55,945 nt of DNA from Bacteroidales bacterium. Lineage in GTDB: Bacteria > Bacteroidota > Bacteroidia > Bacteroidales > VadinHA17. The notes under the pieces are model-generated. The model saw only the letters and a program-made list of their open reading frames with translations, was not told the DNA's origin and ran no database searches. Below are positions 5,751-13,542 of this stretch, piece by piece (the first letter of the stretch is position 1; every line of letters begins with the position of its first letter). Location of the stretch: positions 7,011 to 62,955 of the forward strand of contig PLNF01000078.1 in the NCBI GenBank assembly GCA_003141715.1, given 5' to 3'. Position numbers and translations under genes: made by a program.

Positions 5751-7355
5751 TTATTTCATTATCTCCTGAAGGTGCTTGATTGTAACTTCCTTTAAATGCC
5801 TTTTTGCTTCATTAATCTTTACGGAATCTGTCTCTAAATCAATGTAATTCTGCCAAAGATCTATGCTCCTGGTTATCTTTCCGGCAGCTTCGTATGCTTT
5901 TGCCAGGTACAGGTTTGTTTCAGGTTCCTCAGGCTTGATTTTATTTGAAAGTTCAAGATATTTCAGGGCCGAATCAGGTTGTTCCTGCATTAAATAGGCG
6001 TTGCCAAGATTTCGATACACAAGGTAAATATACTTCGATCCAGGATATTGCTCCCTGGCCTTATTCAGGATTAATATTGCTTCAATTGGCTGATCCATTG
6101 AATTATATAAATTACCCAGTGCACTACATGAGCGAACATAAACCGTATCGGTGTGGAATGTGGAATCTATCTTAATTGCTTCCTTGTACCAGTGAATTGC
6201 CTGTTTATAGTCTTTCTTGTCATGCAGGGCAAAAGCCATGTTATATGCTGCCCCGCTATTTTTGGGATCATATCCTATAGCCTTAATGGTTTGCATCAGC
6301 GCCTGATTTAAATCGCCCTGTTTATAACTTAATACAGCCAAAGAACTCCACGCATACGAGTATTTTGGATCGCTTGAAAATGCAAGGTCCAGTTCTGCTT
6401 TTGCAGCCTCAAACTCTTTATTATCGATATAAACTATTGATTTTTTGACATGAGATCTTGCAACTTCTCTTTTAGAGTTACCAGCACCTAAAAAGCCGAA
6501 CGGGCCTTTCCTGCCAAATGCTAAGACAACCATTAAAGCGATAAACAAAATTGAAAAGATGTACTTATAATTGTTTTTAATCCAATAACCGCCCTGTTTT
6601 TGTAGCCAACCGGTGTCTTTTTTCTGAATTTTCCCCTTAGTTTGTGGTTGAAGACCCGATGGATTATGACTTTCATCCCCAATAAGAATGTCTGTATTTT
6701 TTTGGTCCATGGATTCAATTAATGACCAGTTTTCTACATGAGATGTTTTCCGGATACTTTTTAAGCTTCCTATAAGCTCATCAATGGCATTTGCTACTTT
6801 GTTGATCTGGTCGCGATAGTAAACTTTATTCAGATTATCGAGAGGACGGTCTTCGCTGGCTCTTAATGGTCTGTTGACGCCGACAGATTTATAAATAAAA
6901 TCAACTCCGCGAAGTGCTCCTCCCAGTACCATTTCAAACAACTTAATATCAGAAATATCCGGCTCGTGAATCCGAACAGGAAGTACACGGCTAGCCACAT
7001 TCCCATTTGGTAATGGTATCTTCAATCCAAACTGATCATGGGAGCTTTGTCCAATAAATGCTTTAAACTCATGTTCCCATGCAAATGATTTTGGATCACA
7101 ATAGGTTCGTGAAATAACCGGAATAAAAATAAGACATTTAAGCTTCTCTTTCAGGGAGGCATCAACATCGTGTGTCTCTAAAAGTCCATCATGATGGTCA
7201 ATGTCAAAATAGACACTGATCTCTTCTTTAAAAGTTGCCCCCAGTTCCCGCTTCAGATTGTCAACAAATTCAGTTACCCAACCATCATATTTATTGTCCT
7301 TCTGGCGGTAGCTTATGAAGATGTCGTATTCATAACCCGGAATTATACTTGCCAT
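5751..7355 (-). CDS. TIR domain - transmembrane - TPR protein (copy 1)
   Basis: 534 aa. Residues 1 to about 165 form a TIR domain: it opens with YDIFISYRQKDNKYDGW and contains CDPKSFAWEHEF near residue 86-97, the region where TIR NADases carry their catalytic glutamate (E94 or E96 are candidates). A variable linker (about 200-250) leads to one membrane helix (about 263-281, YIFSILFIALMVVLAF) and then to tetratricopeptide repeats (about 300-525). The TIR part is probably cytoplasmic and the TPR part on the other side of the inner membrane. It is the last gene of a minus-strand run behind the SiaB-SiaC fusion and the RyR-phosphatase, 50 bases after the latter. It is about 90% identical to the gene at 54040-55644. 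NAD hydrolysis versus pure adaptor function cannot be settled from sequence. Confidence 0.88.
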   Translation of the reverse strand: MASIIPGYEYDIFISYRQKDNKYDGWVTEFVDNLKRELGATFKEEISVYFDIDHHDGLLETHDVDASLKEKLKCLIFIPVISRTYCDPKSFAWEHEFKAFIGQSSHDQFGLKIPLPNGNVASRVLPVRIHEPDISDIKLFEMVLGGALRGVDFIYKSVGVNRPLRASEDRPLDNLNKVYYRDQINKVANAIDELIGSLKSIRKTSHVENWSLIESMDQKNTDILIGDESHNPSGLQPQTKGKIQKKDTGWLQKQGGYWIKNNYKYIFSILFIALMVVLAFGRKGPFGFLGAGNSKREVARSHVKKSIVYIDNKEFEAAKAELDLAFSSDPKYSYAWSSLAVLSYKQGDLNQALMQTIKAIGYDPKNSGAAYNMAFALHDKKDYKQAIHWYKEAIKIDSTFHTDTVYVRSCSALGNLYNSMDQPIEAILILNKAREQYPGSKYIYLVYRNLGNAYLMQEQPDSALKYLELSNKIKPEEPETNLYLAKAYEAAGKITRSIDLWQNYIDLETDSVKINEAKRHLKEVTIKHLQEIMK

Positions 7356-7405: not shown

Positions 7406-9298
7406 TTATATCCTGATTCCAATAACCAGAATATCATCGGTCTGCTCTTCATTATTTTCTTCTCTCCACTGCTCGATCTCTTCGTATAACCTGTCACTTT
7501 GTTCAAGCATAGAACATTCCCGGAGATTAAGTAGAAAATTCATTAATCTTTTTCTCTGATATTTCTTATGATGCTTCCCGCCAAATTGATCGGCATAACC
7601 ATCTGAACATAAATAAATTATATCGCCTGAATTTAGCTGTATTTTCTCCGATGCGAACATACATTCCTCATCTTCACTGGAATCCTCAGGAAGGCTTTTA
7701 GACTGATATTCAATCAGTTCACCTTTTGTAATTCGGTATAACGAATTCTTAACTCCGGAGTATGAAAGGACATTATTCCTCGTATCCAGAATACAAAGAA
7801 CGATGTCCATATCATCCGAAATACCTGTTCCATCCGAATCATTTCGCATAAACCGGTGTATTTTGGAGTATAAATTATGTAAAATATAAGATGGTTCAGT
7901 CAGTCTTATTTCATTCACAGCCTGGTCAAGAATACCATAACCTAATATACTCAGCAGTGCCCCGGGAATCCCATGTCCGGTAGAATCCGCCACAGCAAAT
8001 ATTATCAGATGCTCCCGTTTACTGAAAAAATAGAAATCACCGCTTACAATGTCTTTTGGTTTAAACAGGACAAAACTGTCAGGGAAACATTCCCTGATAT
8101 AAAGATCATCAGGTAAAAAAGTCTCCTGGATATGCTGTGCATAATTATAGCTGCCCTCTACCTCATTGATAGCCTCTTCAATCTTATTATTCCTGATCCT
8201 TATCATTTCCTCTATCTCAGGAGTCCACGTAGCCAGTTTTCTGATCTGATCATTTAATTCCCTGGTTTCATCTAATATTTTGTGTATGCTGCTCTGAGGT
8301 TTTATTGCGTATGATAATTTTTTAATCCTGTTGGGTGAAACAGGAAAGGCTTCATAGTCAATATCCTGTAGGAAAGAGGGGATTAGTTTCACAAGTTCGC
8401 GGTCCTTTTCTTTCTCTGATTCACTCAACTCTTCATATGATATTAAGCTTGGGTGTGTTTTCTTAATATCATCTTTTATACTACCGAAAGTCCAGCCATT
8501 TAATCTCTTCTCCCAACTCCACCTGATATGTTCTACTCTGGCCATGGTTTCAATTTCTTCCTGGTTCAGATGAAGAGCAAAAGGTTTAAAGCCTTTTTTA
8601 ACCTGCCTGATCTTATATCCGATTGATAATAATTTTGTTGGAATATGTGCTGCATTGTCTATGTTAGAGTATTTTATATCGTCAGGCAGATCATCAAAAC
8701 CGGAGGTATATTGATTTCCAGAATTATAAAAAATGTAATTATTTGCCTTTATGTTTTGGTTTCTAATCTCATGCAAATACATGGAGTGAATAGCCCTGGC
8801 AAGTTTTTTAATCATTAACATGTTAATCTCAACAACCTCCTCTTGCCGGATAACTTCATACCCTATCTTTTTAAGCTCGACAGGGATTAAATAATTAAGT
8901 TCCATGCAGAATTTCTGCTGGTCTTTAATTGTACTTTGAAAGGATTTATGAGAAATGATATTGTCATGATCCCTTTGTGCAAGTTTTGTAACCTCATCGT
9001 CGGTTATAATACATGTCCTGCAAAAATCTTCAAAAGGACGTATGAAAAGATTTAAGGTTCTGAATTTATCCGGTATTTCTGCTGTATAGTCATACCAGAA
9101 TGATTTTTCAGCTTTTGTGAGGTTTTTAAATTCTTTATTGAGAGTAGAAGAAAATGTCATTGGAGAACCTGATTCCTTAATATCCTGATAAAGACTTTCT
9201 GCAATCGGGTAAACAAAAAGTTTCTTATACATTTTCTTATCAGGAAACATGTTCTGAGATAACTGATTATCGGTATTATATGTAATTTTTGAACACAT
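7406..9298 (-). CDS. RyR-domain / SpoIIE-type PP2C serine phosphatase
   Basis: 630 aa, probably soluble. A poorly characterised N-terminus (1-155) is followed by two RyR-type units: residues about 160-230 (KKLARAIHSMYLHE, then DDLPDDIKYSN and AAHIPTKLLSIGY) and about 245-315 (MARVEHIRWSWEKRLNGW, then KKTHPSLISYEEL). A helical linker leads to a SpoIIE/PP2C phosphatase (about 385-630). Its metal-site motifs are intact: SGDFYFF, ADSTGHGIPGALLS, LCSDGYADQFGG and the terminal DDILVIG. The expected activity is removal of phosphate from a protein Ser/Thr. The gene upstream in the same operon encodes a SiaB-SiaC fusion, so that SiaC domain is the likely substrate, in the place SiaA holds in known Sia pathways. 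Prokaryotic RyR domains have been proposed to bind nucleotide-like ligands; that is recalled knowledge. In-frame Met17 and Met23 are alternative starts. Confidence 0.87.
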   Translation of the reverse strand: MCSKITYNTDNQLSQNMFPDKKMYKKLFVYPIAESLYQDIKESGSPMTFSSTLNKEFKNLTKAEKSFWYDYTAEIPDKFRTLNLFIRPFEDFCRTCIITDDEVTKLAQRDHDNIISHKSFQSTIKDQQKFCMELNYLIPVELKKIGYEVIRQEEVVEINMLMIKKLARAIHSMYLHEIRNQNIKANNYIFYNSGNQYTSGFDDLPDDIKYSNIDNAAHIPTKLLSIGYKIRQVKKGFKPFALHLNQEEIETMARVEHIRWSWEKRLNGWTFGSIKDDIKKTHPSLISYEELSESEKEKDRELVKLIPSFLQDIDYEAFPVSPNRIKKLSYAIKPQSSIHKILDETRELNDQIRKLATWTPEIEEMIRIRNNKIEEAINEVEGSYNYAQHIQETFLPDDLYIRECFPDSFVLFKPKDIVSGDFYFFSKREHLIIFAVADSTGHGIPGALLSILGYGILDQAVNEIRLTEPSYILHNLYSKIHRFMRNDSDGTGISDDMDIVLCILDTRNNVLSYSGVKNSLYRITKGELIEYQSKSLPEDSSEDEECMFASEKIQLNSGDIIYLCSDGYADQFGGKHHKKYQRKRLMNFLLNLRECSMLEQSDRLYEEIEQWREENNEEQTDDILVIGIRI

Positions 9299-9367: not shown

Positions 9368-10279
9368 TTAATTTATCTCTGACTCTACATATTCAAAAGG
9401 AAATTTTACAATACTCGACATCTCTTTCCCGACCTCCAGCATATCTCCATCTTCTTTTTCATAATACCATTTTACTATTATATTAATTCCCTTTAAACGT
9501 AAACCGGCTAAAACCTTGCAAATATCAAGAATTAACTTACCCGAGGATGAATTAAAATATTCAAAATCAAAGTTAAACTCAACCGGATCTTTTTTATCGT
9601 CCGATTTGATAAGATATAAGCTGAATTCTGCCAGCCATGAGAGAATCTGGTCGTAAAACTCCCTGACATCAGGAGGCCTTGATTCACCTGAAATCAGGTA
9701 AATTTTTTTTTCAGGATCAAGAATGACCTTTGGTGAAAAGGATGTTTGGTCAATTATCAACTTTCTCATGATATATTTATTTAAAGAAATTTTTATTTCA
9801 AAATTTGAATAGCCATTAATCAGAGGTTGAAAGCTGTAACCAATTTTATTCCCTGATTTCATAGCCATATAAATAAAACCGAGCCCGGCTCCATTTTCAC
9901 CCCGAACAGATTCTCTGTTAATTTTATGTTCGTACAAAGTTTTCAGAGCTGCTTCATTGAGGTTATTTAAGTGGTCAAGCCTTCTTGTTAAGTTCTCTTT
10001 TGCACTATCCGGTACCGGATTACCGGCAACAATATATATCTTGTCATTTTCCGTCCTGACTGAAATATGGGAATTCATTCCCGGATCAGCCGATGATAGC
10101 ACTATCTGGTTTTTATAAATATTTTCAAGACACTCAACAACAATAGCATAAACCCTTTTACAGGTTATCTTATTCAAAAATGTAAACTCCTTTGTTTTCC
10201 TGAGTCTTTTTAAAAGTAGTTCTATTACCTTTAAATCAACCGGGCCATGATAATCCAGAAGAATTTCTGATTCGGACAT
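9368..10279 (-). CDS. SiaB-SiaC fusion: GHKL-type kinase joined to DUF1987 phosphoprotein domain
   Basis: The ORF track starts at 10330, but the codon at 10279 (MSESEILLDYHGPVDL) fits the family start better and gives 303 aa. In ORF-track numbering, residues about 20-185 match SiaB/DUF6272: an N-box-like VVECLENIYKN and a glycine-rich lid ENGAGLGFIYMAMKSG, as in GHKL ATPases. Residues about 188-320 match SiaC/DUF1987: FSPKVILDPEKKIYLISGES, then REFYDQILSWLAEF, FEYFNSSSGKLILDI and VKWYYEKEDGDMLEVG. SiaC is normally a separate small protein phosphorylated by SiaB on a Thr in the YxNTSS segment; here that position reads NSSS, so a Ser would be the acceptor. It is the first gene of the operon with the RyR-PP2C phosphatase (69-base gap) and the TIR-TPR gene. 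The fusion of kinase and substrate is unusual. No SiaD-like diguanylate cyclase lies in the window. Confidence 0.85.
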   Translation of the reverse strand: MSESEILLDYHGPVDLKVIELLLKRLRKTKEFTFLNKITCKRVYAIVVECLENIYKNQIVLSSADPGMNSHISVRTENDKIYIVAGNPVPDSAKENLTRRLDHLNNLNEAALKTLYEHKINRESVRGENGAGLGFIYMAMKSGNKIGYSFQPLINGYSNFEIKISLNKYIMRKLIIDQTSFSPKVILDPEKKIYLISGESRPPDVREFYDQILSWLAEFSLYLIKSDDKKDPVEFNFDFEYFNSSSGKLILDICKVLAGLRLKGINIIVKWYYEKEDGDMLEVGKEMSSIVKFPFEYVESEIN

Positions 10280-10455: not shown

Positions 10456-13400
10456 ATGATTGAGACAATTTTAAAAGCACTAGTACAATTATTTGCGTTA
10501 ATAAGCGACGTTCACGATATTTCTGAGATCTCAAGCAAGGAGAAGGATATCGTAAGGATATTTCTGTCACGTCAGCTGAATAATGAACTGGTAAACAGAT
10601 ACATGGAAATGTTCGATGAGTATTTAATACAGTACAATTCGGAAAAAATTGACAGGGGAAGTATTAAAGACATGAAACGTACATCCCTCACTGCTGTCAA
10701 AATTTTAGGGATATGCGAAAAGATAAATGAAGAGTTACAGCAAAAACAGAAGTTGTACGTAATAGTCCAGCTTATGGATTTTATATTATTCGGTGCTGAA
10801 ATAACCGAAAATGAGCTGGAGTTTCTTGAAACTGTATCAATAGCCTTTAATATACCACAGACAGAGTTTCAGAACATAAGAAGTTTCATATTGAAATCTG
10901 TGAATGATATCCCTGAGAAAAACAGGGTAATGATCATAAACAGCACTTATGAAAATGAGTACATAGGGATGAAACATTTGTTCAGGGAAAATCTCAAAGA
11001 CAGTATTTTACTGCTTCATATTGAAAGCACCAATACATTTATTTTAAAATACTCAGGTAAAGAAGATCTCTTCCTGAACGGGCAGAATATATTTTCCGGG
11101 CAGACTTATACTTTTGATCACGGCTCGACAATCCGGGGCTCAGGTACGAATACAATCTATTACAATGATATTTCAAGCATTTTCACTGATGAAACATTTA
11201 AACTTAAAATATCGATTGATGCCATTGATGTTTACCTGAGGTTTAAGAACAGTGAATATGGAATTCAGAAGTTCAATTTTCATGAAGAATCAGGTAACCT
11301 TGTAGGAATTTTAGGTGGGAGCGGTGTTGGTAAGACAACCCTTTTAAATGTTTTAAGCGGTATTACTCAGCCCCAGAGCGGTGAAGTGCTGATAAACGGG
11401 TATAATCTCTATTCCGAAGAAGAAAAGATCCACTTGAAAGGGTTCATTGGTTTTGTCCCGCAGGATGATCTGCTGATTGAAGAACTTACCGTCTGGCAGA
11501 ATCTTTATTACAGTGCAAGAATGTGTCTCGATAACCTTCCTGAAGCTAAACTGGTGGATGTTGTGAATAAGACTCTTTCAGAACTGGACCTTGATGAGAT
11601 CAGAAATCTGAAAGTTGGCAACAGCCTTAATAAAGTAATAAGTGGCGGACAAAGAAAAAGATTAAACATTGCTCTGGAATTAATCCGCGAACCGACAATA
11701 CTCTTTGTTGATGAACCCACATCAGGACTTTCTTCTGTTGACTCTGAAATTGTAATGAATTTACTTAAAGAACAGACAGACAGGGGGAAACTGGTAATTA
11801 TTAATATACATCAGCCTGGTTCCGACCTTTACAAAATGTTTGATAAGATTATGATCATCGACAAAGGAGGATATCAGATATTTTATGGCAATCCTTCAGA
11901 AGCAATTGTATATTTTAAAACAAGGGCCAGTTATGCGAATGCGCATGAAGACCAATGTATTACATGTGGAAATATAAACTCTGATCAGTTACTTCAGATT
12001 ATAGAAGCCAAAGTCATCAACGAGAATGGAAAACATACTCACTTAAGAAAAGTTTCCCCTCAGGAATGGGCTAAAATGTTTATGGGAGATGCTGATAAAG
12101 CAAACCAAAAAACCTTTAACAAGTACAGTACTCTCCCTGAAAATTATTACAGCATTCCCGGTCTTATAAAACAGTCAAAGATTTTTTTTATCCGTGATTT
12201 TTTATCCAAATTGACGAATAGGCAATATGTCATGATTAGCCTGCTTGGAGCGCCTCTGCTGGCTTTTCTGCTGGCATATTTTACTAAATATACCATTGGT
12301 GGAGAATACATTTTCAGCGAAAATGAAAATCTGCCGGCATATCTTTTTATGTGTGTAATTACCTCTCTCTTCCTGGGATTAATAATCAGTGCTGAAGAGA
12401 TTGTCAAAGACAGGAAGATATTGAAAAGGGAGTCATTTCTGAATCTCAGCTGGTTCAGCTACCTGAATTCGAAGGTTATGATAATGTTTTTAATATCAGC
12501 AATTCAGACAATCTCATTCATTCTGATTGGCAATTTCATTCTGGAGATTAAAGGCATGACTATTCCATACTGGATTGTACTATTTACAACATCCTGTTTT
12601 GCGAATATGCTTGGGTTGAACATTTCATCGGCATTCACCTCAGTAATAACAATTTATATACTGATACCGTTCATTCTTATACCCCAGTTATTATTCAGCG
12701 GTGTTATTGTAAAATTCGACAGGCTGCATAAAAACAATCTCTCTTCTTACGAATATGTTCCCATTATCGGGGAAATGATGACTGCACGCTGGTCGTTTGA
12801 AGCCCTGGCAGTCGAACAATTTAAAAACAATAAATATGAAAGGAATTTTTTCAAATACAATTTGGAAATAAGCCAGAATGACTGGTACTCAGTATTCCTT
12901 ATAAATGCCCTTAAAGTTGACCTGAGGGTGTGTACGGTGCTTAAGGATAGTTTACCATACAGACAAACAGTAAATAATGATTTTTATAAACTTAATTATT
13001 ATATCGAAAAGCTGAATGGATTAGCAGGTTTTGGATTAATCCGCGGAAACTGGAAAGAATCTCTTAAAGCTGAAAATTTTAATCCTGAGGCAGCGAAAGA
13101 AGCAGGAAAATATCTTGACAGTTTAACCAGACAGTTCCGGCAGGTTCGAAAAACATACAAGGACAGAAAAGATTCGGTTTCCAGATTTATTGAGGCAAAA
13201 ATCGGGGAAGATGAGTTTATAAAACTAAAAAACAATTATTATAATAAACAATTGGAGATTGTTGTTTTGGACAGATTAAGAGTTGAACAATTTATAGAAA
13301 CAGATAAGAGAATAATTCAGAAATGTGAGCCAGGCTATATGAAACCTCTTTCAAAATATGGTCGGGCACAGTTTTATGCGCCATATAAACAGATCGGGAA

Positions 13401-13542
13401 TACTAAAATTGACACATTCTGGTTCAATCTGATGGTTTTATGGATTGTAACTTTAATTTTATATATTGCCCTGTATTATAATCTTTTACAAAAGTTGGTA
13501 ACCATTTTTGAGAATTTTAAGCTAAAGGAATCAGTTAAGTAA
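10456..13542 (+). CDS. ABCG-like ABC transporter with TerB-like and FHA-like N-terminal regions
   Basis: 1028 aa. Residues 1 to about 155 are helical and TerB-like (QLMDFILFGAEITENELEFL). Residues about 180-245 are beta-rich and FHA-like (EDLFLNGQNIFSGQTYTF). An ABC ATPase follows with all motifs: Walker A GGSGVGKTT (about 285-293), Q-loop VPQDD, signature ISGGQRKR, Walker B ILFVDEPTSGLSS and His switch NIHQPG. The permease is ABC-2 type: four or more membrane helices at about 590-790, a large hydrophilic domain of about 180 residues, and a last helix near the C-terminus (FWFNLMVLWIVTLILYIALY). Domain order matches ABCG half-transporters. It is divergent from the Sia-like operon across about 125-175 bases, which suggests shared control. 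An FHA-like domain would suit sensing of phosphoproteins. The substrate is unknown. Confidence 0.87.
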   Translation: MIETILKALVQLFALISDVHDISEISSKEKDIVRIFLSRQLNNELVNRYMEMFDEYLIQYNSEKIDRGSIKDMKRTSLTAVKILGICEKINEELQQKQKLYVIVQLMDFILFGAEITENELEFLETVSIAFNIPQTEFQNIRSFILKSVNDIPEKNRVMIINSTYENEYIGMKHLFRENLKDSILLLHIESTNTFILKYSGKEDLFLNGQNIFSGQTYTFDHGSTIRGSGTNTIYYNDISSIFTDETFKLKISIDAIDVYLRFKNSEYGIQKFNFHEESGNLVGILGGSGVGKTTLLNVLSGITQPQSGEVLINGYNLYSEEEKIHLKGFIGFVPQDDLLIEELTVWQNLYYSARMCLDNLPEAKLVDVVNKTLSELDLDEIRNLKVGNSLNKVISGGQRKRLNIALELIREPTILFVDEPTSGLSSVDSEIVMNLLKEQTDRGKLVIINIHQPGSDLYKMFDKIMIIDKGGYQIFYGNPSEAIVYFKTRASYANAHEDQCITCGNINSDQLLQIIEAKVINENGKHTHLRKVSPQEWAKMFMGDADKANQKTFNKYSTLPENYYSIPGLIKQSKIFFIRDFLSKLTNRQYVMISLLGAPLLAFLLAYFTKYTIGGEYIFSENENLPAYLFMCVITSLFLGLIISAEEIVKDRKILKRESFLNLSWFSYLNSKVMIMFLISAIQTISFILIGNFILEIKGMTIPYWIVLFTTSCFANMLGLNISSAFTSVITIYILIPFILIPQLLFSGVIVKFDRLHKNNLSSYEYVPIIGEMMTARWSFEALAVEQFKNNKYERNFFKYNLEISQNDWYSVFLINALKVDLRVCTVLKDSLPYRQTVNNDFYKLNYYIEKLNGLAGFGLIRGNWKESLKAENFNPEAAKEAGKYLDSLTRQFRQVRKTYKDRKDSVSRFIEAKIGEDEFIKLKNNYYNKQLEIVVLDRLRVEQFIETDKRIIQKCEPGYMKPLSKYGRAQFYAPYKQIGNTKIDTFWFNLMVLWIVTLILYIALYYNLLQKLVTIFENFKLKESVK

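What the first reader, a model, noticed from the sequence alone, without database searches (positions are those of the whole stretch)
9368..10279. Kinase and phospho-substrate of a Sia-type switch fused in one protein
The N-terminal half has GHKL kinase boxes of SiaB (VVECLENIYKN, ENGAGLGFIYMAMKSG) and the C-terminal half is a full SiaC/DUF1987 domain. In the Pseudomonas pathway these are separate proteins whose reversible contact matters. A fusion would allow phosphorylation in cis and change how the substrate is released. The acceptor position looks like Ser (YFNSSSGK) rather than Thr.
Basis: partly seen in the sequence, partly recalled or inferred. Interest (0 to 1): 0.75.

Follow-up and report, generated by a model that had tools for sequence, protein, structure and literature searches.

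The report
Kinase fused to its switch protein
In one lineage of Bacteroidales bacteria, two normally separate parts of a phosphorylation switch (a kinase and the protein it switches) are made as a single protein, differing from the usual two-gene form by a single stop codon, and the switch sits beside a membrane transporter that is probably what it controls.

Summary
The minus-strand ORF 10279-9368 (303 aa) joins a SiaB-type kinase domain (DUF6272, E 2e-27) to a complete SiaC/DUF1987 domain (E 2.9e-29). The kinase motifs are intact, and Ser244 occupies the column of the P. aeruginosa phospho-acceptor Thr68.

It is not an assembly accident: the fused frame is kept in 19-20 of 62 species of the genus, down to 48% identity, at the same locus. 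One relative (G006), nested inside the fused clade, and the nearest outgroup (G042) have the two genes split by an in-frame TAA exactly where fused genes have a sense codon. It is not the standard form: in about 400 genomes each of phylum and order, SiaB and SiaC are mostly separate, but fusion recurs (two other single fusions, about 13 apparent SiaB-SiaB-SiaC triples).

Downstream lies a SiaA-like phosphatase with an RyR domain. No GGDEF protein was found, so a SiaD-type cyclase is unlikely as target; an adjacent ABC-2 transporter is the constant neighbour and likeliest output. Ser as acceptor is ordinary. Kinase-substrate fusion has a precedent (Rv1364c) in another partner-switch family, so this is a new variant of a known kind. 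Phosphorylation in cis is plausible but untested.

The parts
9368..10279 (-). Whole fused gene, 303 aa (SiaB-type kinase + SiaC)
   Evidence: conserved in 19-20 species
9779..10279 (-). SiaB/DUF6272 kinase half (residues 1-167)
   Evidence: Pfam DUF6272 2e-27; NCBIfam SiaB_fam_kinase 103.7 bits against cut-off 85; fold match 6kko_A
10121..10135 (-). N-box E49-C-L-E-N53 of the GHKL-type kinase
   Evidence: E49 and N53 invariant in 8 aligned fusions; VE...N motif in all 21 homologs
9872..9898 (-). Glycine box (about residues 128-136, GENGAGLGFI region)
   Evidence: conserved, with AELGF in 3 species
9773..9775 (-). Tyr169 codon TAT at the position where the split homologs G006 and G042 have the stop TAA
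   Evidence: junction DNA table
9767..9769 (-). Met171 ATG, the start codon of SiaC in split homologs; possible internal start
   Evidence: kept in all 19-20 fused genes; weak RNA-structure signal
9371..9769 (-). SiaC/DUF1987 half (residues 171-303)
   Evidence: Pfam SiaC 2.9e-29; fold match 6kkp/6kko_C/7e6g
9548..9550 (-). Ser244, predicted phospho-acceptor (column of P. aeruginosa SiaC Thr68), at the start of a helix
   Evidence: alignments; helix 244-262 in the model; invariant in the fusions
7406..9298 (-). RyR + SpoIIE (PP2C) phosphatase, predicted SiaA counterpart
   Evidence: Pfam RyR 3.4e-14, SpoIIE 3.7e-16; NCBIfam SiaA C-terminal half 2.1e-49; downstream of most fusions
10456..13542 (+). 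Divergent ABC-2 transporter with a weakly TerB-like N-terminal region; predicted output of the switch
   Evidence: Pfam ABC_tran 6.2e-30, ABC2_membrane 8e-18, TerB only 0.018; linked to SiaB/SiaC at all loci of this type examined and 28 of 45 sampled loci

Best explanation
The gene encodes a one-chain partner-switch module of the Sia type. The N-terminal SiaB-type GHKL kinase domain uses ATP to phosphorylate Ser244 of the C-terminal SiaC domain, within the chain or between chains of a dimer (inferred). The RyR-SpoIIE phosphatase of the same operon removes the phosphate on a cytoplasmic signal (inferred from the domains). Unphosphorylated SiaC binds and activates a target. The target is probably not a SiaD-type cyclase, because no GGDEF protein was found; it is most likely the divergent ABC-2 transporter (inferred from constant linkage). 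The fusion arose by loss of the stop codon between two adjacent in-frame genes. It fixes a 1:1 ratio and probably insulates this pair from the other 7 SiaC and 3 other DUF6272 domains of the cell (inferred). Shown here: architecture, motif integrity, conservation, the one-codon difference, gene neighbourhood. Not shown: any activity.
For: Both domains over cut-off in one frame and by fold. Fused frame kept in 19-20 of 62 genus members, 48-83% identity, with a fixed linker length. Split homolog G006 lies inside the fused clade with good support, and outgroup G042 is split at the same codon. Kinase boxes and acceptor kept. RyR-SpoIIE phosphatase next door in about 11 of 15 loci. No GGDEF in the genome while the search rings in 8 of 14 controls. 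ABC transporter beside the fused and split loci of this type that were examined, beside a lone SiaC in G008, beside the separate paralogous SiaB-SiaC pair of the same genome, and in 28 of 45 sampled SiaB/SiaC loci with only about 1.5 kb flank. The genome holds 8 SiaC and 4 DUF6272 domains.
Against: No biochemical data. Three species have Gly to Glu in the glycine box (AELGF), which may weaken their kinase. Four fused loci show no RyR-SpoIIE gene nearby, though some end at contig ends. About a third of sampled SiaB/SiaC loci show no such transporter within the short flank, and two of four such transporters in the genome are not beside SiaC. The relative placing of the two halves is not resolved: the linker region has pLDDT below 50 and pTM is 0.58. 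Genome completeness is 94%, so a missed GGDEF gene is not fully excluded.
Confidence: 0.68

Rival explanations
1. The single frame makes two products: the full fusion and free SiaC started at the retained internal ATG (Met171), so the cell still has a diffusible SiaC and the fused copy is a tethered reserve or self-inhibited form.
For: The ATG is kept in all 19-20 fused genes while the former stop codon and the next codon vary; two SiaB-SiaB-SiaC triples (G045, G051) have lost the Met; RNA around the ATG is less structured than synonymous recodings (mean percentile 0.65 against 0.45 elsewhere, p=0.004).
Against: The neighbouring residues R172, K173 and L174 are about as conserved, so Met may be kept for protein reasons; the species are related, so the p value overstates the support; no ribosome or protein data.
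Confidence: 0.22
2. The fusion is a neutral stop-loss: it behaves as two domains on a string with no change in regulation, and persists by drift.
For: One codon separates the forms and G006 is split within the fused clade, so the two forms interchange easily.
Against: The fused frame survives in 19-20 species down to 48% identity with no indel in the linker, and fusion recurs elsewhere. In the split outgroups G042 and G825 the linked phosphatase is a different type (HAMP in G042), suggesting a reworked module.
Confidence: 0.2
3. The kinase half mainly phosphorylates other SiaC proteins in trans, and the fused SiaC half serves as docking or inhibitory domain.
For: The genome has 8 SiaC but only 4 DUF6272 domains, two of them in a single protein, and six SiaC genes have no kinase next door.
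Against: The acceptor Ser244 and its surroundings are among the most conserved parts of the protein, and the SiaC half is better conserved than the kinase half.
Confidence: 0.12
4. Assembly or sequencing artefact joining two genes.
For: The split form exists at the same locus in G006 and G042.
Against: Some 19 other species assembled independently are fused, with sense codons for four amino acids at the former stop.
Confidence: 0.01

Closest known systems
SiaABCD of Pseudomonas aeruginosa (SiaB kinase, SiaC phosphoprotein, SiaA phosphatase, SiaD cyclase)
   Same: Homologous kinase and SiaC domains, acceptor in the same column, SiaA-like SpoIIE/PP2C phosphatase encoded alongside (PMC7647112, PMC7278518)
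   Different: SiaB and SiaC are separate proteins there; SiaA is a membrane protein, here the phosphatase carries an RyR domain; no GGDEF protein found here; an ABC-2 transporter is the linked gene
Rv1364c of Mycobacterium tuberculosis (PAS-PP2C-kinase-STAS in one chain)
   Same: GHKL-type kinase and its STAS-like substrate in one polypeptide (PMC9138534, section 8.5); its RsbU-RsbW part appears weakly in the fold search (3ke6_B, E 0.075)
   Different: RsbW/RsbV family rather than SiaB/SiaC, controls a sigma factor, phosphatase fused too
Separate SiaB-SiaC pairs of Bacteroidales, for example contig C46 of the same genome
   Same: Same domains, same gene order, same type of adjacent ABC-2 transporter
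   Different: Stop codon between the genes; 29-36% identity; acceptor Thr
SpoIIAB/SpoIIAA and RsbW/RsbV partner switches
   Same: Kinase fold and Ser acceptor at the start of a helix (PMC7647112)
   Different: Two proteins, sigma-factor output; seen here by fold only, not by sequence profile

Membership tests
SiaB-type protein kinase (DUF6272) | Match to the family profile over cut-off | tested here: met
   PF19788 95.9 bits (cut-off 26.6); NF038262 103.7 bits (cut-off 85)
SiaB-type protein kinase (DUF6272) | GHKL N-box (E...N) and glycine box | tested here: met
   E49, N53 and GAGLGF
SiaB-type protein kinase (DUF6272) | ATP-dependent phosphorylation of SiaC | not testable with these tools
   needs an assay
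SiaC/DUF1987 | Match to the family profile over cut-off and SiaC fold | tested here: met
   PF09345 101.6 bits (cut-off 24.5); fold match 6kkp/7e6g
SiaC/DUF1987 | Ser/Thr acceptor in the Thr68 column at the N-terminus of helix 2 | tested here: met
   Ser244
P. aeruginosa-type SiaB and SiaC equivalogs | NCBIfam equivalog cut-offs (225 and 150 bits) | tested here: not met
   57.9 and 59.9 bits; homologous families, not the same equivalogs
SiaABCD pathway | SiaA-type PP2C phosphatase encoded nearby | tested here: met
   window 7406-9298, SpoIIE domain over cut-off; NF038263 2.1e-49 over its C-terminal half, below that equivalog's cut-off of 700 bits
SiaABCD pathway | SiaD diguanylate cyclase as output | tested here: not met
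   no GGDEF domain found in the genome (94% complete)
Rv1364c-like single-chain partner switch | Kinase and STAS-like substrate in one chain | tested here: met
   architecture, (analogous; family differs)
Rv1364c-like single-chain partner switch | Phosphatase in the same chain | tested here: not met
   separate gene 7406-9298

The most novel reading that the evidence does not exclude
A Sia-type switch controls an ABC-2 transporter instead of a cyclase, and in this lineage the kinase and substrate are toggled between fused and free forms by a single codon, with the retained internal start giving both a tethered and a free SiaC from one gene.
Probability: 0.18. Interest if true: 0.65.

Novelty: new variant of a known kind. 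Interest (0 to 1): 0.45.

Why it matters
It gives a natural single-chain version of a kinase-substrate pair studied only as two proteins, with an almost exact natural control (the split form one codon away), so the effect of tethering on a partner switch can be tested directly. It also points to a concrete output for the many Sia-type switches of Bacteroidales: an adjacent ABC-2 transporter. In the open-access library searched, only one paper uses the name DUF1987 and none uses DUF6272 or 'SiaB family protein kinase'.

Tried and rejected
Artefact of assembly: rejected by 19-20 species. Ancestral 4-base overlap with a frameshift (ATGA at the junction): rejected, since split homologs are in the same frame with a TAA two codons before the ATG. 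Ser acceptor as a peculiarity: rejected, as Ser and Thr alternate among paralogs. Cyclase output: no GGDEF found. Phage or plasmid origin: no phage match, no viral contig, plasmid matches are distant, and those with annotation list SiaB and SiaC as two features. The genome-contig scan for names gave only two loci. The SiaB-SiaC crystal paper (EMBO J 2020) is not held, so published interface residues could not be compared. Row G066 was labelled 'split' by my script only because of an N gap; its open frame runs through the junction without a stop.

Full report
What is there. On the minus strand, 10279-9368 is one open frame of 303 codons. Residues 38-160 match DUF6272 (2e-27) and residues 176-299 match SiaC/DUF1987 (2.9e-29). 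The NCBIfam SiaB-family kinase model passes its cut-off, but the stricter P. aeruginosa-type SiaB and SiaC equivalogs do not. The closest solved structures are the two chains of the P. aeruginosa SiaB-SiaC complex, 6kko, by sequence and by a predicted model (mean pLDDT 77 from five rows) against the PDB (6kko_A 5.7e-09; 6kkp 4.1e-07). The N-box residues E49 and N53 and the glycine box are present. The acceptor column of Thr68 (PMC7647112) holds Ser244, at the start of a helix in the model.

Is the fusion real? In the genus, 62 species were searched. Nineteen have the fused frame over its full or nearly full length and a twentieth (G066, with an N gap) runs through the junction without a stop or nearly so counted; G006 has it split, and G008 has only the SiaC half at this locus. 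The count is therefore given as 19-20. Fused copies range from 83% down to 48% identity. At the junction all copies have the same spacing. Fused genes read N-K-(Y/H/N/S)-x-Met with small variations; G006 reads N-T-stop-I-Met and G042, from another family, N-E-stop-F-Met. The TAA sits exactly at the codon where the fused genes have TAT, TAC, CAT, CAC, AAT or TCT. On a maximum-likelihood tree G006 lies within the fused group (supports 95/95, 97/96, 93/85), so the simplest history is one stop-loss in the ancestor and one return to TAA in G006; a base error in G006 cannot be excluded without reads.

How common is it? In 396 genomes across the phylum no other fused frame passed 1e-30; the seven other two-domain hits had a stop between the domains. 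In 295 genomes of the class 170 have DUF6272; the rows printed are mostly ORFs of 180-220 codons. In 393 genomes of the order most two-domain hits have a stop in between. In the part of the list that was printed, the exceptions are this gene, G1022 (318 aa), G751 (317 aa) and about 13 proteins of 500-535 aa. G1022 and G751 carry both domains in one frame. Of the long ones, G045 was checked by Pfam (two DUF6272 domains then SiaC) and G051 by BLAST; the others are inferred from length and open frame. So fusion recurs but is a minority form. Only one paper in the searched library uses any of these family names, and the passages read do not mention a fusion.

Surroundings. Downstream on the same strand lies a RyR-SpoIIE phosphatase whose C-terminal half matches SiaA. 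The phosphatase beside the split genes of G042 carries a HAMP domain instead. RyR-SpoIIE (or a fragment at a contig end) is found in about 11 of 15 loci; G026, G010, G018 and G029 show none in the stretch fetched. The divergent gene 10456-13542 encodes an ABC-2 transporter with a weakly TerB-like N-terminal region. It is present at every fused and split locus of this type examined, beside the lone SiaC of G008, and as a 42% identical paralog beside the separate SiaB-SiaC pair on contig C46 of the same genome. In 45 SiaB/SiaC loci with about 1.5 kb of flank, 28 show this transporter and 23 a SpoIIE phosphatase. The genome has four such transporters, two of them next to SiaB-SiaC. It has no detected GGDEF domain, while the same search rings in 8 of 14 control genomes. 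The known output, SiaC activation of the cyclase SiaD (PMC8457831), is therefore probably not available here. My inference is that the transporter is the target; this rests on linkage only.

Why fuse? The genome carries 8 SiaC and 4 DUF6272 domains. In a cell with so many similar substrates, tethering fixes stoichiometry and would limit cross-talk. That is inference. A possible complication is the retained internal ATG. It is kept in all the fused genes and lost in the two triple proteins examined, and the RNA around it is less structured than synonymous recodings (mean percentile 0.65 against 0.45, p=0.004, related sequences). The adjoining residues are nearly as conserved, so this is suggestive only.

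Comparison with the known. By sequence and fold both halves belong to the SiaB and SiaC families. As a pathway it fails the SiaD criterion. Single-chain kinase plus STAS substrate is known from Rv1364c (PMC9138534), in the RsbW/RsbV family, so the idea of the fusion is not new; its occurrence in the Sia family, the one-codon difference from the split form, and the transporter link are, as far as the searches here show, undescribed. Subscription papers and InterPro architecture tables could not be consulted.

Verdict. Observation confirmed; interpretation partly supported; moderate interest. Confidence is high for the architecture and its conservation, fair for the phospho-switch, and lower for cis action and the transporter as target.

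Noticed in passing
L061:6825-8411, L062:2010-3581, and about 11 further order-level hits: Apparent triple proteins DUF6272-DUF6272-SiaC of 500-535 aa occur in several families of the order; in the two examined the Met at the start of SiaC has been lost.
   Followed up: partly
L060:6408-7523 (contig C40 of the window's genome): A 372 aa protein with two DUF6272 domains and no SiaC gene nearby.
   Followed up: no
window 10456-13542; L059:2603-5677; 28 of 45 sampled loci: An ABC-2 transporter with a weakly TerB-like N-terminal region is a frequent neighbour of SiaB-SiaC pairs in this order, a candidate output of the switch in bacteria without GGDEF proteins.
   Followed up: partly
L110:4798-6051 and 6051-6440 (contig C25): Another SiaC paralog directly abuts an ORF that looks like an ABC transporter permease (judged by eye only).
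   Followed up: no
window 5751-7355: Weakly TIR-like N-terminal domain (Pfam TIR_2 0.029, below cut-off) with TPR repeats; homologs of its first 200 residues with other C-termini lie near many of the fused loci.
   Followed up: no
fused proteins of G001, G012, G066 (L019, L022, L069): Glycine box reads AELGF instead of AGLGF, so the kinase half may be weakened in these species.
   Followed up: no
window 7406-9298 compared with L057:7511-9703: The sensor part of the linked phosphatase differs: RyR domain in the fused lineage, HAMP in the split outgroup.
   Followed up: partly
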